From Actinomycetota bacterium (lineage in GTDB: Bacteria > Actinomycetota > Thermoleophilia > BMS3ABIN01): DNA of 64,000 bases. The stretch lies in NCBI GenBank assembly GCA_016235065.1, contig JACRMB010000010.1, positions 134,281-198,280 of the forward strand, read 5' to 3'. Positions 2,471-64,000 of the stretch are shown in pieces. The translations under genes were made by a program, and so were the position numbers. Each line of letters opens with the position of its first letter. Within the stretch, counting starts at the first letter, position 1. The notes below the pieces were generated by a model. The model saw only the letters and a list, made by a program, of their open reading frames with translations. It searched no databases and was not told the origin of the DNA.

Positions 2471-3094
2471 CTATGGCTTGGTGATATCAACCACTATTCT
2501 GCCTGGCGAACCGAGGCCGGCCAGCGAATAAGTACCTGGCGAGGCCAGTTCGATCGAATAGACCAGCGCCTGGTCGTCGGCTTCCGGAAGCCGCTTTATG
2601 GATGTGACGAATGGGTCTCCCGGATCGAGGGAGGTGGAGGTCACACTCGCATTGGAGCTCATTGATCTGATCCCGCCGAGGATGACCTTGATCTGTTTGC
2701 CGTCCGCGGACATGGTGGCATCAGCATGCGGGACCTGGAGGACCAGCTCACCCTCCGGTGTTCCCATCTCAAACACAATGCGGTAGTAAGTGCCGTGGTC
2801 AGACCAGCGGACATCGCGAAGCTGCAGGCCGTCGATCAGAGTGCCCACCGACTGGCTGCCGGTCAGACCGGCTCCATAGGGTAAAGGCTGTTCTTCGGGT
2901 ACAGTCTGTGTGGGTTCTGGCGTGGTGTATGGCACCGGTGTCTCTACTGGCGCTGTCGCGGTGGTCACGCCGCCGGCGCCCGAATCCACGGTAGTGGAAG
3001 AATCGTCGTTGCAGCCGGCCAGAAAAGCTGAAGACAGCACCAGTGCCGTCAATACCACGGCAGCCGTGAGCTTTCGCATTCCAGTCAGTCGCAT
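2471..3094 (-). CDS. Lipoprotein with C-terminal AMIN-like domain
   Basis: A 207-residue predicted lipoprotein. The signal peptide ends in the lipobox LAGC (Cys about residue 28) and is followed by a Ser/Thr/Pro-rich linker to about residue 85. The C-terminal ~120 residues form a beta-rich domain with the pattern YYRIVFEMG ... GRIVVDI, resembling the AMIN-like domain found in actinobacterial envelope lipoproteins. AMIN domains generally attach proteins to cell-wall polymers, so a role at the cell surface is inferred. It stands alone and converges on the exporter gene. Confidence 0.7.
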   Translation of the reverse strand: MRLTGMRKLTAAVVLTALVLSSAFLAGCNDDSSTTVDSGAGGVTTATAPVETPVPYTTPEPTQTVPEEQPLPYGAGLTGSQSVGTLIDGLQLRDVRWSDHGTYYRIVFEMGTPEGELVLQVPHADATMSADGKQIKVILGGIRSMSSNASVTSTSLDPGDPFVTSIKRLPEADDQALVYSIELASPGTYSLAGLGSPGRIVVDITKP

Positions 3095-48958: not shown

Positions 48959-50167
48959 CTATTCCTCGCTTGCGCCTTCTCCCTCTTCTTCGTAGTACTC
49001 TTCGTAGAAGATGTAGGGATTGTCCCTCGGGGCCTTGACCATCTTCGGCGACGGATCTTCGCCGATACCTTCCAGGAAGGTCGCGAGGCTGATGCGCTCG
49101 ATGAACTCGCCGATGCGCTCGCGGGCGGTGCCGTGCTCATCCCAGAACTCCCAGATGCGCTCGAGCAGGTCGTGCAGCGGCTCGTAGTCGCCATCCTCGA
49201 TCTTCATGAAGGGGATGATGACCGAACCGAAGAGCGCGCCTTCCACGATCGGAGCCTTGGCTCCGAGGCAGATCGCGAAGCCCCTGTCGTCGCCCGGTGA
49301 AAGAGCCTTGGGCAGACGGTTGAGGCAATGCATGCACTTGACGCAATCGCTGTCGTCGATATTGATCTCCTTGCCCTCGACCGTGATGCAGCTGGTCGGG
49401 CAGAGGTCCACGACAGCGCCCTGGATGTCCATGCCGCTATCGACATACTCGGCAAAGGCAGCCTGGTCGACCTTGATCGCGTCGCGCCAGATACCGATGA
49501 TGCCCATGTCCGAGCGGGCGATGGCGGCGGTGCAGTCGTTCGGGCAGCCGGACATCTTGATCTTGTACTTGTAGTTGAACATGGGGCGGTGCAGCTCGTC
49601 CTGATAACTCTTCGTCAGGTTGTAGGTCATGTCCATCGTGTCATAACAGGCCATCTCGCAACGGGCGGGGCCGTTGCAGCAGCTGGGCGTACGGAGGTCA
49701 GAACCGGAGCCGCCAAGGTCCCAGCCTTTTTCCGTCAGGGCCCTGAAGATGGGCTCCAGCTCTTCCGTGCGGGTTCCGAGAAGGACCATGTCACCGGTGG
49801 AGCCGTGCATGTTGGTGAGGCCTGAGCCGTGCTCGTCCCAGATCTGCATGATCTCGCGGAGCGCGTCCGTGGTATAGAACCAGCCGGAAGGCTGATTCAC
49901 ACGAACAGTGTGAAAATGTGAAACGCCGGGATACTCTTCCGGCAGGGCTGAGTAACGGCCGATAACGCCACCGCCATAGCCCATGACGCCTACGAGGCCG
50001 CCGTGCTTCCAGTAGCCACGCCTGTCCTCATAGGACTTTTCCAGCTGACCCAGAAGGTCTTTGCACATGTCAGACTTGTCTACGCAAGTCTTGATGTCCG
50101 TGACAAAGCTGGGCCAGGGTCCCTTTTCCAGCTCGTCTAGGAGCGGAGTCTTGAGATCATCTGCCAT
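48959..50167 (-). CDS. dsrA: Dissimilatory sulfite reductase subunit alpha
   Basis: A 402-residue subunit with the siroheme-cluster motif SCCNGPARCEMACYDT and GCPNDCTAAIARSD, plus a ferredoxin region DDSDCVKCMHCLNRLPKAL. It forms the A2B2 enzyme with DsrB. Phylogeny of DsrAB could decide between reductive and oxidative type. It follows the dsrMCKJOP group in the same operon. Confidence 0.98.
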   Translation of the reverse strand: MADDLKTPLLDELEKGPWPSFVTDIKTCVDKSDMCKDLLGQLEKSYEDRRGYWKHGGLVGVMGYGGGVIGRYSALPEEYPGVSHFHTVRVNQPSGWFYTTDALREIMQIWDEHGSGLTNMHGSTGDMVLLGTRTEELEPIFRALTEKGWDLGGSGSDLRTPSCCNGPARCEMACYDTMDMTYNLTKSYQDELHRPMFNYKYKIKMSGCPNDCTAAIARSDMGIIGIWRDAIKVDQAAFAEYVDSGMDIQGAVVDLCPTSCITVEGKEINIDDSDCVKCMHCLNRLPKALSPGDDRGFAICLGAKAPIVEGALFGSVIIPFMKIEDGDYEPLHDLLERIWEFWDEHGTARERIGEFIERISLATFLEGIGEDPSPKMVKAPRDNPYIFYEEYYEEEGEGASEE

Positions 50168-50243
50168 TCCTGCTCTCCTTTGCTTTGATTGCGGTTGCTA
50201 GTCCTGCGGTTGCTTGATGTGAATATCAGGCGGTAAAAAAGCT

Positions 50244-51515
50244 TTAGGCCTGGGCTCCCTCTGCCAAACCTTCTACTGCCCCAACGCTCTCTTCTTCCTC
50301 AGTCTCCTCTACTGGCTCCTCAGCGTGGACGGGCTTCACGAAGATGCCCTCCCTCGGCATGAGCGGCAGCAGCTTCAGACCCATGAGGTATACGAGCCCA
50401 ATGAGAGCGAAAATACCAGCGAACTGGACCCATTCGACCAGACGCGGGATATAGGTGACGTTGATGCCGTCCTGGAAACCACTGGACAGCTCGTACCCGG
50501 GCAGGATCGGCTGAGCCAGCACCTGTCCGGGAAGGATGAACAGCATGCGCTCGCCGAGCACTCCGATGACGTGCATGACCGATGCGCCCAGGATCCAGCC
50601 GATCTTGTTCCTCGTAGCCGGGTTGAAGAGGATGAATATGGGGATGAAAAGCCCCACCAGGTACAGCTGCACCCAGAAGACGAAGGTAAAGAAATTGCCT
50701 CCGAACATGACGAACATCTCACCGTGCTGGAACTCGGGATCATACAGGTGAGTCAGGTGCTCGATGGTCACCAGGTAGAAGACGAAGATCATCAAAGCCA
50801 GCATGATCTTGGAAAGCTGCAGGTAGAAACGCGGGTCGATATAGCGCTTCGTGTATTTGAAAGTCAGGAAAAGCATCACCATCGCCAGCGCGGTTCCCGA
50901 AGAAAGGGCCGCGACTACAAAAGCGAGCGGCGTGATCGACGAGAAGTACATGTCGCGACCGTTGATGATACCGAAGATGAAGCCGGTGCCGGAGTGCACG
51001 AAGACGGCGGCTACGACCGCGGCGGTTCCCATGACATTGGTCCAGCGATCGCTCTCCTTGAACTGCGCCCAGAGGTAGAGCACACCGATGGTCATGTAAC
51101 TCATATAGATGAAAGCGTTCAGTGAGAGCATCGAACGCGGATTGATCATGTAGAAGGGAAGGAACAGGCGATCCGGGCGGCCCCAGTCGGAGATGAGGAT
51201 GGAGAGCGCGCCCACCATGAACAGCACCGAGTTGAAAGCGGCTACCCTGGAAAGCACCTTGTATTCCTTCTGCTTGAAGATTACCGCGAGTCCCGAGATC
51301 ATCAGAGAACCGGCGCTAAGACCCACGAACAGCACAAAGATAACCTTGGCGCCGCCCCAGGTCACCGAAGTGCTCTGGCCGGTCAGATAGAAGCCCTGCG
51401 TGAACCTGATGAGAGTTGCCACAAGCCAGCCGAGTACCAGGCCCGCGCAGATAGCGCTGGCGGTCCAGAAACCCGCGCTTTTACCATCGATTCTGGAGAA
51501 ATAGTAATTCGCCAC
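50244..51515 (-). CDS. dsrP: DsrP, NrfD-type quinol-interacting membrane subunit
   Basis: A 423-residue integral membrane protein with about ten TM helices of the NrfD/PsrC family. It exchanges electrons between the quinone pool and DsrO/DsrJ in the DsrMKJOP complex. The acidic C-terminus (PVEETEEEESVG) is cytoplasmic or linker-like. Next to dsrO. Confidence 0.95.
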   Translation of the reverse strand: MANYYFSRIDGKSAGFWTASAICAGLVLGWLVATLIRFTQGFYLTGQSTSVTWGGAKVIFVLFVGLSAGSLMISGLAVIFKQKEYKVLSRVAAFNSVLFMVGALSILISDWGRPDRLFLPFYMINPRSMLSLNAFIYMSYMTIGVLYLWAQFKESDRWTNVMGTAAVVAAVFVHSGTGFIFGIINGRDMYFSSITPLAFVVAALSSGTALAMVMLFLTFKYTKRYIDPRFYLQLSKIMLALMIFVFYLVTIEHLTHLYDPEFQHGEMFVMFGGNFFTFVFWVQLYLVGLFIPIFILFNPATRNKIGWILGASVMHVIGVLGERMLFILPGQVLAQPILPGYELSSGFQDGINVTYIPRLVEWVQFAGIFALIGLVYLMGLKLLPLMPREGIFVKPVHAEEPVEETEEEESVGAVEGLAEGAQA

Positions 51516-51558
51516 TACGACCTCTCAGTCCCTGAATTAGAAGTTGCTGTAATCACGA

Positions 51559-52368
51559 TCATCCCAAGACCTTCTCGAGAACGCCCTCGTTCTTGGACAG
51601 GCCCAGATAGAACACGTTCGGCTCGAGCTCCATGTTCGGCCTCAGCGTCAGCGTCTGGCCGTCGGCGATCATCCGGGTCACTTCCTGCCGCTTCTCGTTG
51701 CGGTTGCCGAACTTGAGAGCGCCCATCGGGCATTTCTCGACGCAGGCAGGTTTCTCGCCGGCTTCGAGGTCCTTGTGAGCGCAGAAAGTACACTTGGTGG
51801 CGACGCCCAGCATCATCGCGGGCACCTTGGTGTTCTGGTCTTCCGGCGGGATCGGGTTCTCGCGGAACACGATGGTCCTGGCCCGGAAGGGGCAGGCTAT
51901 GACGCAATACCGGCAACCGATGCAGCGGTGCTCATCGATGAGGACGATGCCGTCCTTTTCCCGACGGAAAGAAGCCTTGGTGGGGCATACATCGACGCAT
52001 GGAGGCTTCGTGCAGTGCTGGCACAGCAGCGGGATCGGCCGTGCGTCGATCTCGGTGTCGGAGACTTCCTGCTCCATCTCCCCTACCCTGATCCAGTAAG
52101 GCGTGTAGCGCTTGGCGTCCTCGCCATAGACAGCCTCAAGATTGGGGACGTTGTTCTCCTCGCGGCACGCCTCTTCGCATTTCTTGCAGCCGTCGCACTT
52201 GTTGAGATCGACGGTCATGGCGTACTGTATGGAATCCTTTTTCGAGCTCCCGGAGGAGGCCATGGTCGACGTCACCAGCAGCTGTGACGCCGGCAGCGCG
52301 GCGCTTGCCGCAGCAACCAAACCACCCAGCTTCAGAAACGCTCTTCTATCCATTCCTTCGTTAGCCAT
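51559..52368 (-). CDS. dsrO: DsrO, Tat-exported iron-sulfur subunit
   Basis: A 269-residue ferredoxin-like protein. The twin-arginine signal is MDRRAFLKLGG. Four [4Fe-4S] cluster groups follow: CDGCKKCEEAC, CQHCTKPPCVDVCP, CIGCRYCVIACP and CTFCAHKD...CVEKCP. Periplasmic or outer-face partner of DsrP and DsrJ. Confidence 0.95.
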   Translation of the reverse strand: MANEGMDRRAFLKLGGLVAAASAALPASQLLVTSTMASSGSSKKDSIQYAMTVDLNKCDGCKKCEEACREENNVPNLEAVYGEDAKRYTPYWIRVGEMEQEVSDTEIDARPIPLLCQHCTKPPCVDVCPTKASFRREKDGIVLIDEHRCIGCRYCVIACPFRARTIVFRENPIPPEDQNTKVPAMMLGVATKCTFCAHKDLEAGEKPACVEKCPMGALKFGNRNEKRQEVTRMIADGQTLTLRPNMELEPNVFYLGLSKNEGVLEKVLG

Positions 52369-52431
52369 TGCTTGACCTTTTCTCCCTTTGTCTTTTTAGG
52401 CCGCGGCCCGGTCAGGGTAATCCAGGTTGAA

Positions 52432-52866
52432 CTATTCCTTATAGCCTTCGGGACGGAACGAACGGGGCTGGTCCTCGGTCGAGTGGCAGCCGCCTGTCTG
52501 ATCCATACACCCGGGCTGAACGCCGTTGTAGTTATGGCACTCTTTGCAGAAGTCCTCGTACTTGTGGCAGCTGAAGCAACGCTCGATCTGGAAACGCTCG
52601 TCGCGCTCGCCCTCACGTACCACCTTGACGCGCTCGTTCTTGAGCTCTTTCATGTGGTTGACGCGCATATAGTCCTTGGTTGATTCCGGCGTGCCACCCC
52701 GGGCGCCGCCGTCCGTGGCGACACAGATTGTCGTGTCGGCCTCGGTGCCCTTGGTCAGGTCCGGAGCCTCTTCGGGGCTGCCGAGCTTGCCGCTGGCGGC
52801 ATTGACCAGCACCGGTGACGCCAGGACCAGCAGGAAGATTATTGTTGCGATAACGGCTTTTTTCAT
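52432..52866 (-). CDS. dsrJ: DsrJ, multiheme cytochrome c subunit
   Basis: A 144-residue exported cytochrome with a signal peptide (1-23). Two canonical motifs, CFSCH and CKECH, are present. The third, usually CxxCH after the Y/N-GVxP block, here reads CMDQTGGCH (CX6CH). The start overlaps the dsrK stop by four bases (ATGA), so translation is coupled. Confidence 0.9.
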   Translation of the reverse strand: MKKAVIATIIFLLVLASPVLVNAASGKLGSPEEAPDLTKGTEADTTICVATDGGARGGTPESTKDYMRVNHMKELKNERVKVVREGERDERFQIERCFSCHKYEDFCKECHNYNGVQPGCMDQTGGCHSTEDQPRSFRPEGYKE

Positions 52867-54446
52867 TCTTTTGCTCCCAGTTCAATGGCGCTGGCGACTA
52901 ACTGATGGACGCCGCCAGCCACTTCCATGCTGACACCGTACTTCGGAAGGATCTTGGTGAACTGTGCCTTGCAGATGGCGCAGATCAGCGCCAGGAAGTT
53001 GACTCCGTGCGATTCCTGCACCTTGCTGAAAGCCTGCATCCTGGGCATTGCGCCCTGGACGCGCAGTTCCAGCAGGTCGTCGGTCAGTAGACCGCCGCCG
53101 CCGCCGCAACAGAAGGTCCTCTCCTTGATGGTATCCTCATCCATCTCCACGTAATTGTTGCAACTCGCCTTGATAAGCTCGCGCGGGATGTCAAACTGGC
53201 CGTTGGGCCTGCCGCCCATACCGGCGCCGCGGGCAACATTGCAGGAATCATGGAAAGTGACGACGCGGTCGTCGTTCTGGGATTTATCTAGCTTGATGGC
53301 CCCGCGGTTCACGAGGTCCAGAGTGTATTCACAGATATGCTGCGGGCGGGGAAAATTCGGATCCAGCGAATCGAATGGTCCGATCAGCGTGTTCCAGAAG
53401 GAATACGCAACCCTCCAGGCGTGGCCGCACTCGCCGACGATCACTCGCTTGGGCTTGATCTCGCGGATCGCGTCAGTCAGCCGTGATGCGACTTTCTGCA
53501 TCTGGCCGTAGTTACCGATGAACATGCCGAAGTTGCCGGCCTCGGAGGCGGCGGAGCTGAATGTCCAGCTTACTCCTGCCTGATGGAAGACCTTGGCGTA
53601 ACCAAGTAACGATTCCACGTGCGGTGAGGCGAAGAAATCGGCTGAAGGAGTGATCATGAGTACCTCAGCGCCCACCTCATCGAGTGGCAGCCTGATCTTC
53701 TTGCCGGTCTCTTCCTCCAGGTCCTCTTCAGTGGACTCGAGAGTCGCGCCAAGGGCTTTGGGGTTCATACCCAGGTTGTTGCCGACGTCGTGGACCTTGA
53801 CAATGATGTCGTTCACATACTTCTGGCCGACTCCGATGTGGTCCATGATCTCGCGGGCCGCCATGGAGATCTCAGCGGTATCAATGCCGTAGGGGCAAAA
53901 GACCGAACAGCGGCGGCACTGGGAGCATTGGTGGAAGTAGCTGTACCACTCACCAAGCAGCTCCAGGTCGAGCTTCTCGGCGCCTGCAAGCTTGCCGAGT
54001 ATCTTGCCCTCGGTGGTGAAATATTTGCGGTAGACTTTGCGGAAAAGCTCGGCGCGGGCGACCGGCATGTTCTTGCCGTCCTCGGTGCCAATGAAATAGT
54101 GGCACTTGTCGGTGCAGGAGCCGCACTTGACGCAGATGTCCATATAGACCTGAAGGGACTTGTACTTCTCCAGCAGGTCGCCCATCTTGGCGATGGCCGC
54201 GTCGTGCCAGTCCTCGCGCAGATCGGTGGGAAAACCCAGCTTCTCCATGGCTTCAGGCTTGCAGAGGTACGGCTTGTTGCCGGCTGCTGAGCCTTCCTTC
54301 ACCTTGGGGATCTTTATGGAACCCGTCAGCTCGTCAGGATGGATCTCGTTCGGCTTCTTCCTGGGAACTGAGGGTTCGCCGACCTTCTCCAGGTCGGTCA
54401 AAACTTTTGGTTCTTCTTCGGTTGCTGTTGCCTCTTTATCTGCCAT
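52863..54446 (-). CDS. dsrK: DsrK, heterodisulfide-reductase-like subunit
   Basis: A 527-residue cytoplasmic iron-sulfur protein related to HdrD. A ferredoxin pair (CVKCGSCTDKC, CSQCRRCSVFCP) and CCG-type domains (GECGHAWR, SCNVARGAG, TFCCGGGGGLL) hold the special catalytic cluster that is thought to reduce the DsrC trisulfide. It pairs with DsrM. Confidence 0.97.
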   Translation of the reverse strand: MADKEATATEEEPKVLTDLEKVGEPSVPRKKPNEIHPDELTGSIKIPKVKEGSAAGNKPYLCKPEAMEKLGFPTDLREDWHDAAIAKMGDLLEKYKSLQVYMDICVKCGSCTDKCHYFIGTEDGKNMPVARAELFRKVYRKYFTTEGKILGKLAGAEKLDLELLGEWYSYFHQCSQCRRCSVFCPYGIDTAEISMAAREIMDHIGVGQKYVNDIIVKVHDVGNNLGMNPKALGATLESTEEDLEEETGKKIRLPLDEVGAEVLMITPSADFFASPHVESLLGYAKVFHQAGVSWTFSSAASEAGNFGMFIGNYGQMQKVASRLTDAIREIKPKRVIVGECGHAWRVAYSFWNTLIGPFDSLDPNFPRPQHICEYTLDLVNRGAIKLDKSQNDDRVVTFHDSCNVARGAGMGGRPNGQFDIPRELIKASCNNYVEMDEDTIKERTFCCGGGGGLLTDDLLELRVQGAMPRMQAFSKVQESHGVNFLALICAICKAQFTKILPKYGVSMEVAGGVHQLVASAIELGAKE

Positions 54447-54569
54447 TAAATGCTTTCCTTTCGGAGACTAAAAGTGCCACTGCCGGCACTTATAAAGCAG
54501 CCTGAGCCGCTTCCGCACAAAGGAATTAACGCCCGCCCGTACTGAAACTTTCCTTATTGAAACTGGATC

Positions 54570-54607
54570 AGAGGCCGGCCGCGCCGGAAACCGCCCGGCC
54601 GACCTCT
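54570..54607 (-). repeat. Hairpin between dsrC and dsrK
   Basis: A GC-rich 12-bp stem (54570-54581 with 54596-54607, one mismatch) lies 30 bp after the dsrC stop. There is no T-run. It may stabilise or process the dsrMC part of the transcript. Confidence 0.6.
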
Positions 54608-54638
54608 GGATAAACGCCCTAAAACAAGCTGATCCGGA

Positions 54639-54974
54639 TTAGACGCAGCCGGTCGGCTTCGGGAGCCCGGCGATCTTGCAGGCCTGGAGGGCCGGACCGG
54701 CGGGATACAGGTCATAGAGGTAGGCGCTGTTGCCCTTCTCCGGACCGAACATCTTCTTCATTTCCTTGATGAGGATCTTGATTGCGGGAGCGATGTTGTA
54801 CTCGCTGTAATAGTTGCGCAGGAAGTTGATGACTTCCCAGTGCGCCTCGGTCAGATCCACACCCTCGAGGTCGGCGATGTACTTGGCGACGTCCTCGTTC
54901 CACTCGTTGAGGTCTACCAGATAACCGTCATCATCTGTCTCATATGTCTTGCCGTCGATATCGAAGCTACCCAT
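54639..54974 (-). CDS. dsrC: DsrC sulfur carrier protein
   Basis: A 111-residue protein with the flexible C-terminal arm LQACKIAGLPKPTGCV. Both conserved cysteines are present: Cys 99 (CysB) and the penultimate Cys 110 (CysA). These form the trisulfide product of DsrAB, so this is a true DsrC and not TusE. It lies between dsrM and dsrK, an unusual place. Confidence 0.97.
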   Translation of the reverse strand: MGSFDIDGKTYETDDDGYLVDLNEWNEDVAKYIADLEGVDLTEAHWEVINFLRNYYSEYNIAPAIKILIKEMKKMFGPEKGNSAYLYDLYPAGPALQACKIAGLPKPTGCV

Positions 54975-55103
54975 TTTGCATTTCCTCCTGTTTGTATGAC
55001 TTGCCTTGGTCCCCGGGGCCCTGATCGCCTGTCCCCGGCCTATATTAAGAGAGCAGTCTGCTCGGTGGAGCGCCTCTCACTTAACCACTACCACTATGTC
55101 CCG

Positions 55104-55180
55104 GGGACATAATTCTTTGTGTCCCCGGACTAATACTCTGCGCGGGACATGATCATTCGTGTCCCTGGAGTAATACTCTT
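55104..55180. repeat. Duplicated GTGTCCC-type element between dsrM and dsrC
   Basis: Two ~38-bp units (55104-55140 and 55143-55180), each built as gggacat-a/gat-tgtgtccc followed by gga-taatactct. Each unit can fold on itself. The same gggacaca/tgtgtccc theme occurs in the cluster at 44381-44510. The rest of the dsrM-dsrC gap (54975-55184) holds no gene. Confidence 0.7.
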
Positions 55181-55184
55181 GCTT

Positions 55185-55970
55185 TTACGCCTTTGCTGGT
55201 GCCTCCGCGACCTCTTCTTTTACCGTGACAACAGTGTTGCCTGAGATATCCGCGGCCCACGGGGCTACCAGCCGCTTTTCGCGCGGATTGTCTACCTGGT
55301 TCCTGGTCGGGCTGAAGAAGACACCGGCTGCGTGCATCAGCTTGCTGAACGGGAAGTATGCCAGCAGGAACAGCACCAGGCTGAAATGGATGATAAAGAT
55401 CGTCTCCGAAGGGAAATCAGTCGCCATCGGCTTGAAGGCGACCAGGCCCATCATGAACTCCTTCACCTGGGTGATGTCGACCCGGTAGAAGTGCTTGGCC
55501 AGGGTACCGGTGAGCGCGATGGAGATGAGCAGGATGATGAGGATGTAGTCGGTCATGACTGAGATGAACATGTTACGGTCGACCACCAGGCGCAGCAGGA
55601 AAAGGAGGCCGAGGCCGCCCATCATGATGATGCCCGGATACATCTCGAAAGTGTCGAAATAGCTGAGGCCGGCGGGGACGCTGGCGAAGAGAAAACGGTA
55701 GTGCTTGACGAGGACTAGCAGAAGGCCGATGTGGAAGACGTATCCGGCCAGCCAGATGACCCGGTTGCTCTTGAAAAGGCTCTTGAAGAGCACTACTTCG
55801 GAAAGCACCCGCACGGGAACACCGGTAGCGGTCACAGGGGCTGGCGTCTGCGGGATCTTCAGTGGCGCCGGAGTGGTGCCATATTTCCAAACCTTGGCGA
55901 GAACGCCTACCAGAAAGATCGCTAGTGCCGCGTAACCGAGAACCACGAATAATGCTGTCAAACCGCTCAC
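55185..55970 (-). CDS. dsrM: DsrM, NarI-like cytochrome b subunit
   Basis: A 261-residue membrane protein with about six TM segments and conserved His residues (YVFHIGLLLVLVKHYRF, IIHFSLVL) that bind heme b. DsrM passes electrons from menaquinol to DsrK. It is the first gene of the operon, starting with GTG preceded by AGGAAGAGG. Confidence 0.95.
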   Translation of the reverse strand: MSGLTALFVVLGYAALAIFLVGVLAKVWKYGTTPAPLKIPQTPAPVTATGVPVRVLSEVVLFKSLFKSNRVIWLAGYVFHIGLLLVLVKHYRFLFASVPAGLSYFDTFEMYPGIIMMGGLGLLFLLRLVVDRNMFISVMTDYILIILLISIALTGTLAKHFYRVDITQVKEFMMGLVAFKPMATDFPSETIFIIHFSLVLFLLAYFPFSKLMHAAGVFFSPTRNQVDNPREKRLVAPWAADISGNTVVTVKEEVAEAPAKA

Positions 55971-56320: not shown

Positions 56321-56885
56321 CTAACGTATCTCGGTGAGCTCCCATTCATCGATTTCCATAATTTCTAGACCCCTTCTTGCTTGTTCGGCAGTCCTGCGTG
56401 GCATGTTGTTTGATATTCCGATGTATTTGACTTTACCCGCCTCATCTAAGGCCGCATACTGAGAGGCCGTTTAAGTCATATCTGGTTAAGGGATTATTAG
56501 TGGCGTAGGCGTAGCGGTTTCTTTGCTGGGGATCGGTGGGGGCGCCCTTTAAGGGGTCCATGCTGGTGAAGCGGCCCAGTGCCGGGTCATACTCTCTGGC
56601 TCCCATCCGGATAGTGCCGGTTACGCTGTCCTTGTCTCGTTGCCATTTACCGGTGTAGCCGTTAGTGAGGCTGGCTGAGTTTATGGCGTTACCGAAGGCG
56701 TCGTAGCGGTATGAGGCGGTTACGGCGCCGTTTTCGTCTGTTAGGGCGCTGGTGTCGCCATGGGGGTTATAGAGATGGTAGCTGGTTGCCGGCGTCTGGC
56801 CGGTGTAGTCGGTCTGGCTGATGAGGCCGTCGGAGCCCTGGAGGTAGGAGCTGGTGAGGGTGGCGGTGGCGTTGGTTTCGTAGTC
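56321..56885 (-). pseudogene. Displaced RHS-tip fragment (orphan toxin cassette), frameshifted
   Basis: The minus strand encodes DYETNATATLTSSYLQG and continues through the RHS core end (NPHGDTSALTDENG, RMGAREYDPALGRFTS, RNRYAYATNNPLTRYDLNG). This is nearly the same as the large gene at 57484-64000. After NGLS the frame stops. In another frame it continues as AALDEAGKVKYIGISNN, then RRTAEQARRGLEI, the start of a GIY-YIG toxin tip, and ends at 56321. It lacks a start, the pre-tip linker and the catalytic Glu, so it is a remnant of an earlier or alternative toxin end. Confidence 0.85.
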
Positions 56886-56989: not shown

Positions 56990-57475
56990 TTAAGCTTTGT
57001 AAAGAGGGTCGCTCTCACTTGTCCATCCAGATTCAATTCTGTGGACGAGCATGATGTCGTTCCAAGTACCCGGCATTACCGGAAGCTTCTTTTGTTCTGG
57101 TGTTAGTTCGCCGACTTTCCGGTCGTTTTCGCCATCCCAAAGCCACCAAACCGAAACCTGGCCGGTTTCGGGATCTATAATACCATCCCTGAATAGCGGA
57201 AGCTCTTTCCATTCCTCTGGCACTGCTTCATTTCCCACGACAGTAACAACTTGACGGTTTACATATATGGCGAGCGGAAAAAAAGCGATAAAGCGTTCCT
57301 TTTCCTTTACCAATTCAGAGAATGAGCTGGGTCTCTTTTTGAAAAAACCTGGGAGGATTCTAATAAGCGCACCGTATCTGGGCGGCTTGTCGTGCTTAAA
57401 CGTAAACTGCGCGTAAGCAAGCCCTTTTTTTGTTTTGATCTCAATGACATCGCCTATCTTTACTCTCTTTGGCAT
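56990..57475 (-). CDS. Putative immunity protein for the RHS nuclease toxin (Imm26-like)
   Basis: A 161-residue cytoplasmic protein beginning MPKRVKIGDVIEIKTKKG, with YGALIRILPGFF, FIAFFPLAI, VSVWWLWDGEN and LPVMPGTWNDIMLVHRIESGW. The beta-rich opening 'GDVIEI-x-GLAYAQ' resembles Imm26-type immunity proteins. It starts 8 bp after the toxin stop, the standard toxin-immunity layout, which is the main support. Family membership is from memory and needs a profile search. Confidence 0.6.
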   Translation of the reverse strand: MPKRVKIGDVIEIKTKKGLAYAQFTFKHDKPPRYGALIRILPGFFKKRPSSFSELVKEKERFIAFFPLAIYVNRQVVTVVGNEAVPEEWKELPLFRDGIIDPETGQVSVWWLWDGENDRKVGELTPEQKKLPVMPGTWNDIMLVHRIESGWTSESDPLYKA

Positions 57476-57483
57476 ATCTTCTC

Positions 57484-60400
57484 CTAAAATCCTGAATAGC
57501 TTGCCGATTTCAGCAACTCTCTACCTCGAATGACAGATTCCTCGTAGATAGGATTGTTTCTTGAAATACTATTGATTTTATTCAGAAGAGTGCCTCCATT
57601 TTTCTGAAGACCATGATGTTCTATCAATAGCTGCTCAGCAGCCCGTGCTTCGGATCGGGGTAGATCGACGAGACCAGGAATTCTTTTAATATTTAGACCC
57701 CTTCTTGCTTGTTCGGCAGTCCGACGTTCGATGTTATTAGTTATACCGATGTACTTGACCTTGCCGGCCTCGTCTATTGCCCTGTAAACTGTTGCAAGCT
57801 TACCTTGGGCTCGTTCAATCTTCGCAATCTTCGCAAGTTTTCCTAACTTCCCCAGCTTCCCCCCGGGTACGAAATTCAGCGCGATGAACCCCATGGCCCC
57901 GAATCTCTCATTAAGGCTCGCGTCAGCCGAGAACAGCACCTTGAAGTCCTCGATGAAGAAGTCGTTGGCGAACTGGCCGGTGGCGTCCCAGAGCATCGAA
58001 GGGTTGTTGTAGCCGATCTGAACTCCATTCCACCACTCGCCAGCAGCGTCGCCGGTCCAGCTGGCGGCGTCCTTGATGTTATCCCCTATGCCGGGGCCGC
58101 AGGTAGAAAGGCCGGTTAAGTCGTACCGGGTCAGCGGGTTATTGGTAGCGTAGGCGTAGCGGTTTCTTTGCTGGGGATCAGTGGCAGATCCTTTTAACGG
58201 ATCTGCACTGGTGAAGCGGCCCAGGGAGGGGTCGTACTCTCTTGCTCCCATCCTGATAGTGCCGGTCAGGTTGTCTTTGTCTCGCTGCCATTTACCGGTG
58301 TAGCCGTTAGTGGGGCTGGCTGAGTTAATGGCGTTACCGAAGGCGTCGTAGCGGTATGAGGCGGTTACGGTGCCGTTATCGTCTGTTAGGGCGCTGGTGT
58401 CGCCATGGGGGTTATAGAGATGGTAGCTGGTTGCCGGTGTCTGGCCGGTGTAGTCGGTCTGGCTGATGAGGCCGTCCGCGCCCTGGAGGTAGGAGCTTTT
58501 GAGGGTGGTGGTGGCGTTGGTTTCGTAGTCTGCTACGTCGCTGCCGGGGCTTAGGTGGTAGTTGGTTGTGTTTGCACCCTCGCTTCTTTGTATCCTTCTG
58601 CCCTGGGCATCGTAGGCGTAGCTCACAGTGGCGGTGGGTGTGGCTACTTCGGTCAGTTTGTCGAGGCCGTTATAGGCATAGGTGGTGGTTTCGGAGCCGG
58701 TGGTTTTCTGGGTCAGGGCGCCAATGGGGTTGTAGGAGAAGTCAGTGATTTCCTGCCCGTTGGTCAGCTGGGTTAGCTGGTTGGCCTGGTTATAGCTGTA
58801 GCTGGTAAGGCCGGAAGTTGGTTCTGATAGAGTCGAACGATTGCCGGCTGGGTCATATGAATAGCCTATCGCGCCGTAGCCGGTTATATTCTCAGAGGTG
58901 AGGCGATTCAGGGCGTCGTAGGAGTAGGCGATCGAACCAAGGCCAACCTGATCCATGGCCGTGATGTTTCCAGCGGCATCATAGGTCTGGGTGAACGATT
59001 GCAGTGTCTGACCGCCCATTGTCGACTGCAGGGCGGTGAGTCGGTTGGCTACATCGTAGCTATAGCTTGTTGCGACACCGTTGGCATATGTCTTGCCCGC
59101 GAGATTGCCCGCCGCGTCAAAAGTGAAGCCGTTTGTCTCGGCGCCTCTGGTCACGCTCTTTAGCTGGCTTCTTGGAGTGTACTGATATGAAGTGATGAAG
59201 CTCTCTCCGGCAACGCTATCCTGGCGCTGGGTCAGATTGGCTGCGTCGTCGTAGGTGAAGCTCTCGATGGCGCCGTGGGCGTCGGTCGACTGGGTGAGCA
59301 GGCCCATGGAGTTGTAACTGGAGCTGACAGTCTTTAACGTCGCTTCCTCAGTCGCAGTCAGCTGGTTCTGATTGGCGTCATAGGTGAAGCTGTATGTGGC
59401 GCCCTGACGGTCGGTTACTGCAGTGAGATTGTAGACATCGTCGTAACCGAAGCTAATCGAGCCATCAGCAGTCGTGTCTTTGACCGGATTGCCGGTCTTG
59501 TTATACAAGTAGCTGCGCTCAAGCAGATAAGAGCCCGAGCCGGCGTCAACCTTCTCACTGATCAGTCTGCCAAGCTCGTCATATTCGTATGCGGTTGAAT
59601 GACCGTTGGCGTCTATCTGCCCGGTGCGGTTGCCATTATGGTCGTAGGAGTAGGAAGTGACGCCGCCAGGTGCATCGGTAACCCCAATGAGCAGATCGCT
59701 GGCGCTATAGCTCATATCAGTCTCGTAACCGCGCTGGTCCCTGACCCTGACCGGATTGCCGACGCCGTCATAGCGGTAGCTGACGCTGCCTCCGAGCGGA
59801 TCGGTCGCTGTCTGCAGCCGTTTCAGGGTGTCGTAAGCATAGCTATAGCTGTGTCCGGCAGGGTCGGTGCTCGACAGCAGGTTATCGGACTGGTCATAGG
59901 CGTAGTTTGTTATCCTCAGGGCGCCGCCTTCATCGGGCTCGGTCAGCGAGATCTGCCTGCCGAGTGCGTCATAATTACTGGTCACGGTCTGGCCCAGGGG
60001 ATCGGTAGCAGAAGTCTGGTTTCCTTCAGCGTCATAGGAGAACGTTGACTCGTGGGCTTCGGGATCGATGACCGAGACCAGCCGGTCGTTCTTGTCATAG
60101 CCGAAGTAGGTCCAGTTGCCATTACGATCTTTGGTGGCGGTTTGTTTATAGACAGCGTCGTAGGTGTTTTCAATGGTATTTAGCCTGGCGTCGGTGATCA
60201 GGCTCAGCTTATCCATCGCCGTATAGGCAAACGAAGTTGTCTTGCCTTCGGGGTCGATGACCATGGTTTTGTTGCCGGCGCCGTCGTAGCGGTATTCGGT
60301 AACAAGGTCTTCCGGAAGCTGTGTCTCGGGATTGGTTACCTGGGAGCGCACGAACCTCAGATTGCCGATGGGATCGTACTCGAAGGTGGTCTCGTGACCG

Positions 60401-63400
60401 TTGCCGTCGACCAGGGCTGTCCTTCTTCCCATCAGATCAAAATCGAGATCGATCGTCGCCTGCTCTGCCTGGGGCCTGTTGGTATTCTTGGTCACCTGGT
60501 CGGGATAACCATGGGCGTCGTAGCTATATGTAGTCACATCCCCGTTTCGATCCGTGGCAGAGGTCACAAGGCCGTCTGTGTTATAGAAAAATGACTGCGA
60601 GTAGTTCGAGACGCTTCCATCGTAATTGGTGACTGATGGATATGTCTTTTCGGTAAGCAGCGAACCGGATGCATCATAGGCGAAGGTCGCCGTGTAGCCA
60701 CGGGCGTTTGTGACGGCTATGGGATGATTATTCGCGTTATAGACGGTATGAGTGTGCTGCTGCTCAGGTCGACCATAGGCCAGATAGACATCAGCAATGT
60801 TGCCGTCGGCGTCAAAGATCTGTCTGGTGGATATGCCAAGCCGGTTGGTGACGCCATCCTGATTTCCCATGGCGTCATAAGTGTATGAGGTCTGGTTTCC
60901 GTAGGAATCCTCTTCCCTCACCAGCCGGCCATCGGCGTCGTGATAGAAGATATTCGTGTGATCTTTTGAGGGGTCACCGGGATCCATATGGTTGGTCGCA
61001 GTTGTCTTGTGGAGCGCCGTATCATAATCGAACGTCATCAGGTTGGCTTCGGCATCGGTCTGGCTAACGACCCGGCCTTCCAGGTCGTAAACGTTGTTCA
61101 CGAATGAGTGGCCGTTTGGATCAGTTGCCGAAATGACCCGGTGGTCCGCGTAGGTGAAAGTGGTGACCCCGCCGTTTTGATCAGTGACTGTGGCGAGGTC
61201 TCCCTCGGGTGTATAGCCGAAGGAGACGGTATTTCCAACCGGGTCGGTAATCTCATTTATCAAGTTGTCTATATAATATGTGAACGAAAGCGTCCTGCCG
61301 CTGGGATCGGATACAGTTAGCAGCCGGCCATTGCCATCATAACCTAGATGCGTTAACTGGCCTGTCTCTGATGCCAGTGAGATAAGGCGATGATTGGCAT
61401 CGAACTGGTAGATAACGTTTTCATGGGTTGTTAGAGTACAGGTCTGATCGGGATTCATTACGAGAGTGTCGTACCGGCCCGCGGGCGCCCGGTACGAATT
61501 ATCCGGATTTCTGACAAACAGGTCCGCTCTGCCATCTTCCCTTAATACAGCGATATCGCCATTAGACATGGGACTAACGCTCACCTGCCAGTTATATGAC
61601 CAGCCATAGCCAAGGGGACCGTGCACTGAATCGTTTGAATTGTAGGTCCTTGAGAAAGCAAGCGGCACGCCTCTGGTCAGGATATTGATGTCCTGGTGCT
61701 CATAGACAAAGGCGCCGGTGGCCATATTGACTGGCTCACCGGCCAGGGCAGCGTAAGTATCCATGCCCTTATCGATCGCTGCCTGGCCAAAAGAGGTCTG
61801 GGCCACATCGGCACAGGGATCGTAGTCGAGATTACCGCTGACCCTGTTTTCACTGTTGATGTTGGGGCCATTGGTATCGTTCCAGAAATTGTCAGTGACA
61901 TCTAGCTGGGGAGTACCGCTATATGTTAATGCATACCAGCCGGAACCGTTGGCAAAGATATCATTGTGATGGATGCTCGGCTCACCTGAATAGACGACTA
62001 AGCCCGAGTACTCAGAAGCCATGACGGCAGTCTCGGAAATGTTGGGTGATGCAGCGCTGATTACCAGCTCGCCTGAATCGGAATCATCGCCGCCATAACG
62101 TATAAGGCTCTTGGTGATGCTGCCGTTGCTGCCCGCCTCAAACCTGATACTCCTCCAGTCGCCGGGTCCTGCGCCACTTGTAGCCGGATCATTGTCAGCA
62201 TCGCCGCCGAACTCGTCATCATAGAAAGAGGTGAATACAGCTCCAGTAGCGTTAAGAACACCCTCTACCAACAGCGTCCTGTTGGTGTTGACGTGAAAAG
62301 AGCCATTCGCGTCTGCCTTGAACTTAACAACCGCGCGATCGTCAACGGTCAGTGTTATCCCCTGCATTACCTTGGTCTGCATGACCTCTGCGCCTGGATT
62401 GGGTGGTATACCCTCAAGCACGTAGGGCGAATTGGAAGCCGGCCAGGTCGTGTCCATGGTTACGTGGTCGGTCAGATACATGGCGTTCATGCCGTTGCCT
62501 GAATAAGTATTGCCGGTCACAGCCGCGCCAATGGTTGCCGGCAGTTTGACGGCTATGTCGCTGTTGTCAGTAAAGGTGTTTGAGGCAAGATTTGAAAGAG
62601 ACGTCTGGGAAAAAAGCCCATCAGAGCCATTCCTGACTATGAAGCAGTTGTTGATTGTGGGATCCCCGGAATATATATCGATTCCGCGGCCAAGGGAGTC
62701 GCTGATGCTTGAACCTGTAATGCTCAGGGAGGAGCCATCGATTGCAAGCATGCTCCCATCTATAGCGCCGCCACCAAAGCTGATTGCCGAATTAGTGATG
62801 CCGCCAGTGCTGCCACTGGTGAACCTGATTTCGTACCAGTCCCCGGGAAGCGGTTCGACAGCGCTGCCATAGCCATCGGTATCACCACCATGAGAATCGT
62901 CAAAGAACGAGGTAAAGACGGACCCGGTTGCATTTAGGGCGCCGCTCACCTGCAGATAATGAGTTGTGTTGACATGTCTGCCATCTGACAGGCCGGCAAG
63001 GAACTTCACGGTGGCCCCCGGCTCTACATTCAGGGTGGCTCCAGCCGCTACATTCGTGCGAGTGGGATTGTAGAGGCCCGAATCGCCGGCTAGAACATAT
63101 GGAGCGTTGCTGGCCGGCCAATTGGAATCAGCATCAACATCGCCGCTCAGGTACATGGCGTTATAGATATTTCCGGAATAAGTGTTATTGGTGACGCCGT
63201 TGCCAAGAGTGGCCGGTATTTTTACAGCTATGCCATTGTTGTCACTGAATGTATTGTTTGCCAGCGTCCCGACGACTGAATTGGAGAGAAGTCCGTCGGA
63301 ACCGTTGCGAGTGATGGTTGAGCCGGTGATGACGGGCCTGTCCGCAAAAGTAGTTATGACGCCGCGTGTAAACGAGTCGGATATCGTGGAATTGATAATA

Positions 63401-64000
63401 GCCGTCGAGCCCGCGCTAAGCTGAAGCTGGGCTTCGCTGCCGGCAATGCCCGAGCCTCCGAACGATATCTGGCAGGCATCCACGGTGGCTGCAGGGCCGT
63501 TGAGACTGATCAAGGCCCAATCGCCAGGAATGGGAACACTGGCATCCGCGTCTGAATTGGTATCGCCCCCATGAACGTCATCAAAATATGATGTGAATAT
63601 GGCGCCACTGGCAAGAAGCGAGCCATGCACCTCAAGTGATCGATTGGTATTTACATGGTTTCCCTCATTGAGGTCTGCCATAAATTTGACTACCGCACCC
63701 TGCTCGATAGTCAGAATCACGCCAACATCGACGTTTGCGCTTGGAACTGTGTCTTTCCCTTCAAGCACGTACGGCGAGCTTGAAGCTGGCCAGGTGCTAT
63801 TGGAGATAATGTCGTCCGACAAAAACAAACCGTCACCGGTATTTCCCGAGTAGGTGTTATTGAACACTCCGGTGCCGGTTGTTGCCGGGATTCGGACGGC
63901 TACACCGCCGTTACCAGTAAATGAATTACCCGAAAGGACACTCATAATTAACTCGGACTCGAGACCCACCCCGGCGTTACCGGTTATCGTGTTGCCTGAC
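57484..64000 (-). CDS. RHS polymorphic toxin with beta-helix N-terminus and GIY-YIG nuclease tip (5' end outside window)
   Basis: At least 2171 residues, open through the right edge. Residues to ~740: three to four ~165-residue parallel beta-helix repeats (LTVEPGATVKF, HVNT, GDW and GNTYSGN motifs). ~745-800: DUF6531 (GEPVNMATGAFVYEH, FSRTYNS). ~800-1890: tandem YD/RHS repeats forming a cage. ~1890-2000: RHS core end (GAREYDPSLGRFTSADPL). The last ~102 residues are a GIY-YIG/URI-type nuclease tip: VYRAIDEAGKVKYIGITNN, Arg, catalytic Glu in AAEQLLIEHH, Asn in LLNKIN. The toxin is probably delivered to competitors and cuts DNA. The secretion route is not visible. It is followed by its likely immunity gene. 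Confidence 0.88.
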   Translation of the reverse strand, partial: SGNTITGNAGVGLESELIMSVLSGNSFTGNGGVAVRIPATTGTGVFNNTYSGNTGDGLFLSDDIISNSTWPASSSPYVLEGKDTVPSANVDVGVILTIEQGAVVKFMADLNEGNHVNTNRSLEVHGSLLASGAIFTSYFDDVHGGDTNSDADASVPIPGDWALISLNGPAATVDACQISFGGSGIAGSEAQLQLSAGSTAIINSTISDSFTRGVITTFADRPVITGSTITRNGSDGLLSNSVVGTLANNTFSDNNGIAVKIPATLGNGVTNNTYSGNIYNAMYLSGDVDADSNWPASNAPYVLAGDSGLYNPTRTNVAAGATLNVEPGATVKFLAGLSDGRHVNTTHYLQVSGALNATGSVFTSFFDDSHGGDTDGYGSAVEPLPGDWYEIRFTSGSTGGITNSAISFGGGAIDGSMLAIDGSSLSITGSSISDSLGRGIDIYSGDPTINNCFIVRNGSDGLFSQTSLSNLASNTFTDNSDIAVKLPATIGAAVTGNTYSGNGMNAMYLTDHVTMDTTWPASNSPYVLEGIPPNPGAEVMQTKVMQGITLTVDDRAVVKFKADANGSFHVNTNRTLLVEGVLNATGAVFTSFYDDEFGGDADNDPATSGAGPGDWRSIRFEAGSNGSITKSLIRYGGDDSDSGELVISAASPNISETAVMASEYSGLVVYSGEPSIHHNDIFANGSGWYALTYSGTPQLDVTDNFWNDTNGPNINSENRVSGNLDYDPCADVAQTSFGQAAIDKGMDTYAALAGEPVNMATGAFVYEHQDINILTRGVPLAFSRTYNSNDSVHGPLGYGWSYNWQVSVSPMSNGDIAVLREDGRADLFVRNPDNSYRAPAGRYDTLVMNPDQTCTLTTHENVIYQFDANHRLISLASETGQLTHLGYDGNGRLLTVSDPSGRTLSFTYYIDNLINEITDPVGNTVSFGYTPEGDLATVTDQNGGVTTFTYADHRVISATDPNGHSFVNNVYDLEGRVVSQTDAEANLMTFDYDTALHKTTATNHMDPGDPSKDHTNIFYHDADGRLVREEDSYGNQTSYTYDAMGNQDGVTNRLGISTRQIFDADGNIADVYLAYGRPEQQHTHTVYNANNHPIAVTNARGYTATFAYDASGSLLTEKTYPSVTNYDGSVSNYSQSFFYNTDGLVTSATDRNGDVTTYSYDAHGYPDQVTKNTNRPQAEQATIDLDFDLMGRRTALVDGNGHETTFEYDPIGNLRFVRSQVTNPETQLPEDLVTEYRYDGAGNKTMVIDPEGKTTSFAYTAMDKLSLITDARLNTIENTYDAVYKQTATKDRNGNWTYFGYDKNDRLVSVIDPEAHESTFSYDAEGNQTSATDPLGQTVTSNYDALGRQISLTEPDEGGALRITNYAYDQSDNLLSSTDPAGHSYSYAYDTLKRLQTATDPLGGSVSYRYDGVGNPVRVRDQRGYETDMSYSASDLLIGVTDAPGGVTSYSYDHNGNRTGQIDANGHSTAYEYDELGRLISEKVDAGSGSYLLERSYLYNKTGNPVKDTTADGSISFGYDDVYNLTAVTDRQGATYSFTYDANQNQLTATEEATLKTVSSSYNSMGLLTQSTDAHGAIESFTYDDAANLTQRQDSVAGESFITSYQYTPRSQLKSVTRGAETNGFTFDAAGNLAGKTYANGVATSYSYDVANRLTALQSTMGGQTLQSFTQTYDAAGNITAMDQVGLGSIAYSYDALNRLTSENITGYGAIGYSYDPAGNRSTLSEPTSGLTSYSYNQANQLTQLTNGQEITDFSYNPIGALTQKTTGSETTTYAYNGLDKLTEVATPTATVSYAYDAQGRRIQRSEGANTTNYHLSPGSDVADYETNATTTLKSSYLQGADGLISQTDYTGQTPATSYHLYNPHGDTSALTDDNGTVTASYRYDAFGNAINSASPTNGYTGKWQRDKDNLTGTIRMGAREYDPSLGRFTSADPLKGSATDPQQRNRYAYATNNPLTRYDLTGLSTCGPGIGDNIKDAASWTGDAAGEWWNGVQIGYNNPSMLWDATGQFANDFFIEDFKVLFSADASLNERFGAMGFIALNFVPGGKLGKLGKLAKIAKIERAQGKLATVYRAIDEAGKVKYIGITNNIERRTAEQARRGLNIKRIPGLVDLPRSEARAAEQLLIEHHGLQKNGGTLLNKINSISRNNPIYEESVIRGRELLKSASYSGF

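What the first reader, a model, noticed from the sequence alone, without database searches (positions are those of the whole stretch)
57484..64000. RHS toxin with a beta-helix front end and a URI nuclease tip
The combination of a beta-helix of repeated ~165-residue units, a DUF6531/RHS cage and a short GIY-YIG tip in an actinobacterial-type genome is notable. The beta-helix may act as a stalk or receptor binder.
Basis: partly seen in the sequence, partly recalled or inferred. Interest (0 to 1): 0.6.

Follow-up and report, generated by a model that had tools for sequence, protein, structure and literature searches.

The report
Beta-helix-stalked RHS nuclease toxin
This is an intact, secreted bacterial weapon protein of a known kind (an RHS polymorphic toxin with a predicted DNA-cutting tip and its own antidote gene); what is less usual is that, in this whole bacterial family, the toxin is carried on a long beta-helix of variable length instead of the wall-binding domains normally seen.

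Summary
The open frame at 57484-64000 (minus strand) is the 3' 71% of one uninterrupted 3041-codon gene. Its start lies 2.6 kb beyond the window and has a strong ribosome-binding site and a Sec-type signal sequence. Order of parts: signal sequence, seven beta-helix units of about 224 residues (not 165), DUF6531, RHS core, PxxxxDxxGL boundary, linker, GIY-YIG (URI) tip with all Tox-URI1 active-site positions. Eight bases downstream lies the immunity gene (56990-57475). In all six plasmid records carrying a tip homologue (Rhizobium, Sinorhizobium, Paraburkholderia, Simkania), a homologue of this immunity protein follows directly, although the carriers differ; in another RHS protein of the same phylum the URI tip is followed by Imm26. 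Relatives in the same family keep the signal-helix-DUF6531-RHS body but swap the tip, and decayed or orphan tip cassettes lie downstream, one inside this window. This is therefore a Sec-exported, WapA-like RHS polymorphic toxin with a Tox-URI1 tip. New aspects: the beta-helix presentation module (2 to 7 units) is universal in this family and rare outside it; the immunity family is Imm26-like but uncatalogued. Toxicity, receptor binding and delivery are untested.

The parts
61810..64000 (-). Right-handed beta-helix stalk, C-terminal part (residues about 871-1600 of 3041); the signal sequence and the first units lie beyond the window (G000:C10 up to 200889)
   Evidence: Pfam Beta_helix 1.1e-20; seven units of about 224 aa in the full protein
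61519..61740 (-). DUF6531 domain, start of the RHS module (residues 1624-1697)
   Evidence: Pfam PF20148 E 4.1e-20
58108..61518 (-). RHS/YD-repeat core (cage) ending in the Rhs-associated core and the PLTRYDLTGL boundary motif (58108-58137)
   Evidence: RHS_repeat 8.6e-115, TIGR03696 1e-15; PxxxxDPxGL boundary motif as in PMC3150448, with L in place of the second P
57811..58107 (-). Variable linker (pre-toxin) between core boundary and tip, with a hydrophobic, glycine-rich stretch
   Evidence: sequence; unrelated in the family members with other tips
57487..57810 (-). GIY-YIG/URI nuclease tip (Tox-URI1 type), 108 residues; Y9, YIG 20-22, R30, RAAE 56-59, N77 in tip numbering
   Evidence: Pfam GIY-YIG 24.7 bits; conserved columns; Foldseek best hits UvrC GIY-YIG 1yd6, prob 0.95-1.00
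56990..57475 (-). Cognate immunity gene, 161 aa, 8 bases after the toxin stop codon
   Evidence: homologue directly downstream of the tip homologue in 6 of 6 plasmid records; Imm26-like
56450..56885 (-). Decayed orphan RHS-core fragment (89% identical DNA to the core end of the main gene)
56359..56448 (-). Decayed second URI-tip fragment (82% identical DNA), out of frame with the core fragment and cut short

Best explanation
A Sec-exported RHS polymorphic toxin for competition between bacteria, working like Gram-positive WapA. Steps: (1) the signal sequence sends the 3041-residue chain out through Sec (inferred); (2) the beta-helix of seven units folds outside the membrane as a long rigid stalk and/or adhesin that holds the RHS cage away from the cell and may touch the target's surface (inferred; it takes the place of the LysM/DNRLRE wall-binding region of WapA); (3) the DUF6531-RHS barrel encloses the C-terminal tip, and the aspartyl-protease-type plug cuts at the PxxxxDxxGL boundary (inferred from family; motif present); (4) the released tip, a GIY-YIG/URI metal-dependent endonuclease, enters the neighbour and cuts its DNA (inferred from fold and residues); (5) the 161-residue neighbour protein protects the producer (strongly supported by linkage, not assayed). 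The tip-immunity pair is an exchangeable cassette: other family members carry the same body with different tips, and displaced cassettes lie downstream (shown).
For: Intact 3041-aa gene with Sec-type N-terminus and SD. Domain hits. Tip passes the GIY-YIG cut-off, has the Tox-URI1 signature Y, YxG, R, [RK]xxE, N given in PMC3482391; model matches UvrC and I-TevI. Tip homologues in 6 plasmid records, carriers being filamentous haemagglutinins, an RHS-like protein or unknown; 6/6 followed by an immunity homologue, about 38-51% identical. In G460 an RHS-URI protein is followed by Imm26, 57.1 bits. Orphan copies of the immunity family sit among Imm53, Imm8, MafI and CDI immunity genes. Family comparison: core 46-77% identical in every pair, tips unrelated except G002/G013 (76%, above their 52% core) and a 48-residue stretch shared by G001/G013. 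The C7 tip plus immunity type reappears as an orphan cassette in G013. No WXG100, Omp85 or YadA anchor, but three sortases in the genome: monoderm, no T7SS sign, so Sec.
Against: No assay of toxicity, nuclease activity, immunity or export. The tip model is only moderate (mean pLDDT 71, TM about 0.5, E 0.03). Signal sequence judged by hydropathy, not by a trained predictor. No wall anchor recognised, so surface retention is unproven. The immunity protein itself has no family match in Pfam/NCBIfam above cut-off; only one homologue reaches Imm26, below cut-off (20.5 < 23.3 bits).
Confidence: 0.85

Rival explanations
1. The protein is a structural or adhesive surface protein (YD-repeat plus beta-helix), and the GIY-YIG tail is a passenger with no toxic role.
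For: Beta-helix and YD repeats occur in adhesins; no activity was measured; a beta-helix protein without RHS exists in the class (G027).
Against: Tips swap between otherwise conserved bodies, orphan tip cassettes lie downstream, and the tip travels with the same immunity protein across phyla and carriers.
Confidence: 0.06
2. The locus is a decaying remnant rather than a working weapon: the downstream duplicate is broken and the tip may be unused.
For: Decayed RHS plus URI fragment at 56359-56885; several plasmid tip homologues are broken (Simkania stop, K102 and S. chiapasense frame breaks).
Against: The main gene has no stop in 3041 codons, a good ribosome-binding site, an intact active-site pattern and an intact immunity gene.
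Confidence: 0.06
3. The tip acts on RNA or another nucleic acid (for example tRNA) rather than on chromosomal DNA.
For: B. subtilis WapA tips are tRNases (stated in PMC12704120); URI toxins lack attached DNA-binding domains (PMC3482391).
Against: Characterised GIY-YIG domains such as UvrC and I-TevI cut DNA, and these are the nearest folds.
Confidence: 0.15

Closest known systems
WapA/Rhs toxins of Gram-positive bacteria (B. subtilis, S. suis; PMC12704120)
   Same: Sec signal, N-terminal surface module, RHS barrel, pre-toxin, swappable C-terminal toxin, immunity gene next to it; monoderm host without T7SS markers
   Different: The N-terminal module is a beta-helix with seven units instead of LysM/DNRLRE wall-binding domains; one RHS core rather than the two of S. 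suis WapA; no srtB or secF-like gene seen next to it
Tox-URI1 polymorphic toxins (PMC3482391)
   Same: URI/GIY-YIG fold with Y, YxG, R, [RK]xxE, N; RHS or filamentous-haemagglutinin carriers; Imm26 among its listed partners
   Different: This branch uses an Imm26-like immunity protein not recognised by the Imm26 model
[quoted passage not shown]
   Same: Displaced C-terminal cassettes downstream; the same tip-immunity pair on different carriers; boundary motif PxxxxDPxGL
   Different: Boundary reads PLTRYDLTGL; the stalk is a right-handed beta-helix of another repeat type and there is no TPS transporter
T6SS Rhs toxins (Rhs1 of Photorhabdus, PMC8636562)
   Same: RHS barrel with C-terminal plug and toxin inside
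   Different: No PAAR or EagR-binding N-terminus; Sec signal and beta-helix instead; host is a monoderm

Membership tests
RHS/WapA-type polymorphic toxin | YD/RHS repeats with Rhs-associated core domain | tested here: met
   RHS_repeat 8.6e-115, TIGR03696 1e-15
RHS/WapA-type polymorphic toxin | Conserved body with unrelated, swapped C-terminal tips in relatives | tested here: met
   core 46-77% identical in all pairs; tips unrelated except one pair
RHS/WapA-type polymorphic toxin | Boundary motif PxxxxDPxGL before the tip | tested here: met
   PLTRYDLTGL, one deviation (P to L)
RHS/WapA-type polymorphic toxin | Cognate immunity gene directly downstream | tested here: met
   6 of 6 plasmid tip homologues followed by an immunity homologue; function not assayed
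RHS/WapA-type polymorphic toxin | Orphan tip cassettes downstream | tested here: met
   window 56359-56885; G013 and G002 loci; C7 locus
WapA proper | N-terminal signal peptide | tested here: met
   hydrophobic stretch within residues 13-46, then AQA-A, second copy likewise; no trained predictor run
WapA proper | N-terminal cell-wall-binding domain (LysM, DNRLRE or similar) | tested here: not met
   Pfam scan of residues 871-3041 shows only beta-helix before DUF6531; residues 1-870 were not Pfam-scanned but are signal plus further units of the same repeat by self-alignment
Tox-URI1 | URI/GIY-YIG fold | tested here: met
   24.7 bits above cut-off 22.6; Foldseek to UvrC 1yd6 prob 0.95-1.00 with a moderate model
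Tox-URI1 | Residues Y, YxG, R, [RK]xxE, N | tested here: met
   Y9, Y20-I-G22, R30, R56-A-A-E59, N77
Tox-URI1 | Nuclease activity and toxicity | not testable with these tools
   needs bench work
Imm26 (PF15428) | Score above the Pfam cut-off | tested here: not met
   no match for the window protein; one homologue 20.5 bits against 23.3; collinear with the true Imm26 of G460 but weak: hhalign E 0.02, probability 2%
T7SS-delivered Rhs | WXG100/T7 partners in the genome | tested here: not met
   no WXG100 match in the 98.9% complete genome
Two-partner CDI (CdiA) | Omp85/TpsB-type transporter | tested here: not met
   no Omp85 match in the genome

The most novel reading that the evidence does not exclude
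A lineage-wide alternative presentation module for Sec-exported RHS toxins: a right-handed beta-helix whose number of about 220-residue units changes from gene to gene (2 to 7 seen), acting as an adjustable stalk and receptor-binding element in a monoderm, in effect an analogue of the CdiA stick built onto an RHS toxin.
Probability: 0.45. Interest if true: 0.55.

Novelty: new variant of a known kind. Interest (0 to 1): 0.4.

Why it matters
It gives an intact toxin-immunity pair from a little-known lineage, shows that one URI tip and antidote pair has moved between RHS and CDI-type carriers across phyla, points to a widespread, uncatalogued Imm26-like immunity family, and offers a natural length series of beta-helix stalks with which to ask how Sec-exported RHS toxins get across a thick cell wall, which is an open question for WapA.

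Tried and rejected
PADLOC: no hits. PDB sequence searches with tip and immunity protein, single and profile: nothing meaningful. Fold search with the immunity model: no match below E 0.1, weak SH3-like barrels only; not used. Imm26 model against the genome: no match. The first-pass beta-helix pattern and a plus-strand-only scan missed units and loci and were redone. Viral-contig search for the tip gave one distant GIY-YIG protein, not a toxin. Distant immunity homologues in Phaeobacter (one locus read, in a metabolic operon) were not counted as support. No Pfam name was found for the tips or antidotes of the relatives.

Full report
What was checked. In the assembly that holds the window (G000, 2.37 Mb, 98.9% complete; window = C10:134281-198280) the frame continues 2.6 kb past the window without a stop to a TTG at C10:200889, preceded by GGGGAGGAAAC. 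The full product is 3041 residues. Its N-terminus has a basic start and a hydrophobic stretch (19-residue scanning windows starting at residues 13-28) ending ...SAQA-ATT; it is the only such stretch in the protein.

Anatomy. Signal region (1-45); seven beta-helix units anchored on '(S/N)PYV' at 60, 272, 495, 718, 944, 1168 and 1393 (spacing 212-226, mutual identity 37-53%); DUF6531 at 1624-1697; RHS core to 2834, ending GRFTSADP...NNPLTRYDLTGL; a linker of about 100 residues; and the tip from 2934 to 3041. Pfam and NCBIfam support each part. The tip's GIY-YIG match is sub-threshold in the whole protein but above the curated cut-off when the tip is scanned alone (24.7 against 22.6 bits), and all five homologous tips match the same model. 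The columns V-Y, Y-x-G-I-T, R and E are invariant, with N77 after them, which is the signature Zhang et al. give for Tox-URI1: Y, YxG, R, [RK]xxE, N (PMC3482391). A shallow AlphaFold model (mean pLDDT 71; the N-terminal 70 residues at 73-89) finds the UvrC GIY-YIG domain as its first four PDB matches, with I-TevI sixth. E-values are modest (0.03), so this is support, not proof.

Immunity gene. The 161-residue protein starts 8 bases after the toxin's stop. A tblastn of the tip against 72,556 plasmids gave six records: Rhizobium leguminosarum, R. brockwellii, Rhizobium sp. K102, Sinorhizobium chiapasense, Paraburkholderia caribensis, Simkania negevensis. In all six a homologue of the window's 161-residue protein follows the tip directly, although the carriers differ: haemagglutinin-repeat or FHA proteins in R. 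brockwellii and P. caribensis, an RHS-like end (NDPVNKSDPNG) in R. leguminosarum Norway, and an unannotated carrier in Simkania, which has two immunity copies. Only 37 plasmid records carry any homologue, so a chance 6 of 6 adjacency is not plausible. Some tips are broken (an in-frame stop in Simkania, frame breaks in K102 and S. chiapasense) while an immunity gene remains. Homologues without a toxin lie among other immunity genes in Rhizobium sp. N324 (Imm53, Imm8), R. leguminosarum 3B (MafI) and Pannonibacter (CDI immunity). In another genome of the phylum (G460) an RHS protein with a related URI tip is followed by a true Imm26 (57.1 bits). The window's protein is not recognised as Imm26, one homologue comes close (20.5 against 23.3 bits), and the alignment with G460's Imm26 is collinear but weak. 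I therefore call it Imm26-like, not Imm26.

Polymorphism. The genome has a second RHS gene (C7:144298-149967) with the same signal, helix, DUF6531 and core layout (core 64% identical) but an unrelated tip and its own downstream gene. In the same GTDB family, G001, G002, G007 and G013 show the same body with tips that do not match this one; cores are 46-77% identical in every pair, while the only near-full-length tip match is G002/G013 at 76%, above their core identity of 52%, a sign of tip exchange. The C7 tip type plus its immunity type turns up as an orphan cassette behind the main gene of G013 (32% and 30% identity). In the window itself, behind the immunity gene, lies a broken second copy of core end plus URI tip (56359-56885). 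These are the marks described for rhs-CT/rhsI orphan modules (PMC3150448).

The beta-helix. A profile built from the helix units was run on 30 loci fetched around DUF6531 in 299 genomes of the class. All seven loci from the window's own family have helix units next to DUF6531; of the 23 others only G229 and G023 do. Flanks were 1.5 kb or less, so helices further off would be missed, and the profile came from this family. On plasmids, matches to the last helix unit plus DUF6531 cover only the DUF6531 part. Unit number varies by the anchor count: two in the C7, G002 and G007 proteins, three in G001, four in both G006 genes, at least four in G013, seven here. The literature found lists lectin, wall-binding, transglutaminase-like and SpvB modules before RHS repeats (PMC3482391), and LysM/DNRLRE in WapA (PMC12704120); I found no description of a beta-helix in that place, but the library holds open-licence papers only.

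Export route. The genome lacks WXG100, Omp85 and YadA anchors and has three sortases: most likely a single-membrane cell without T7SS or two-partner secretion. With the signal sequence this leaves the general Sec route, as shown for S. suis WapA (PMC12704120). The phylum name is not given by the tools; 'actinobacterial-type' fits but was not proven.

Verdict. It is an RHS polymorphic toxin with a Tox-URI1 tip and an Imm26-like antidote; the uncommon parts are the beta-helix presentation module and its variable length. Shown: gene integrity, domain content, tip-immunity linkage, tip swapping, orphan cassettes. Inferred: export, stalk function, cage, autocleavage, DNA cleavage, immunity.

Noticed in passing
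56359-56885: Decayed orphan RHS core end plus a second URI-tip fragment behind the immunity gene, out of frame; evidence of past cassette duplication or displacement.
   Followed up: yes
L013 4299-9968 (G000:C7:144298-149967): Second beta-helix RHS toxin of the genome, different tip without a Pfam name, 145-residue neighbour protein, and a broken RHS fragment behind it.
   Followed up: partly
L061 4001-4330 (Simkania plasmid pSn): URI tip homologue is split by an in-frame stop, yet two immunity homologues follow.
   Followed up: partly
L056 640-1152 (G001): Behind another family member (different tip) lies a transposase-like (IS3-type integrase, by eye) frame, possibly linked to tip exchange.
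   Followed up: no
48959-55970: Adjacent cluster of dsr-type sulfur respiration genes (siroheme reductase-like subunit, NrfD-like, ferredoxin, cytochrome, HdrD-like, DsrC-like, DsrM-like) on the same strand; judged by eye from the translations.
   Followed up: no
L058 3833-7630 (G027): A related beta-helix protein in the same class lacks RHS repeats and has an unassigned globular C-terminus, so the helix module is also used elsewhere.
   Followed up: no
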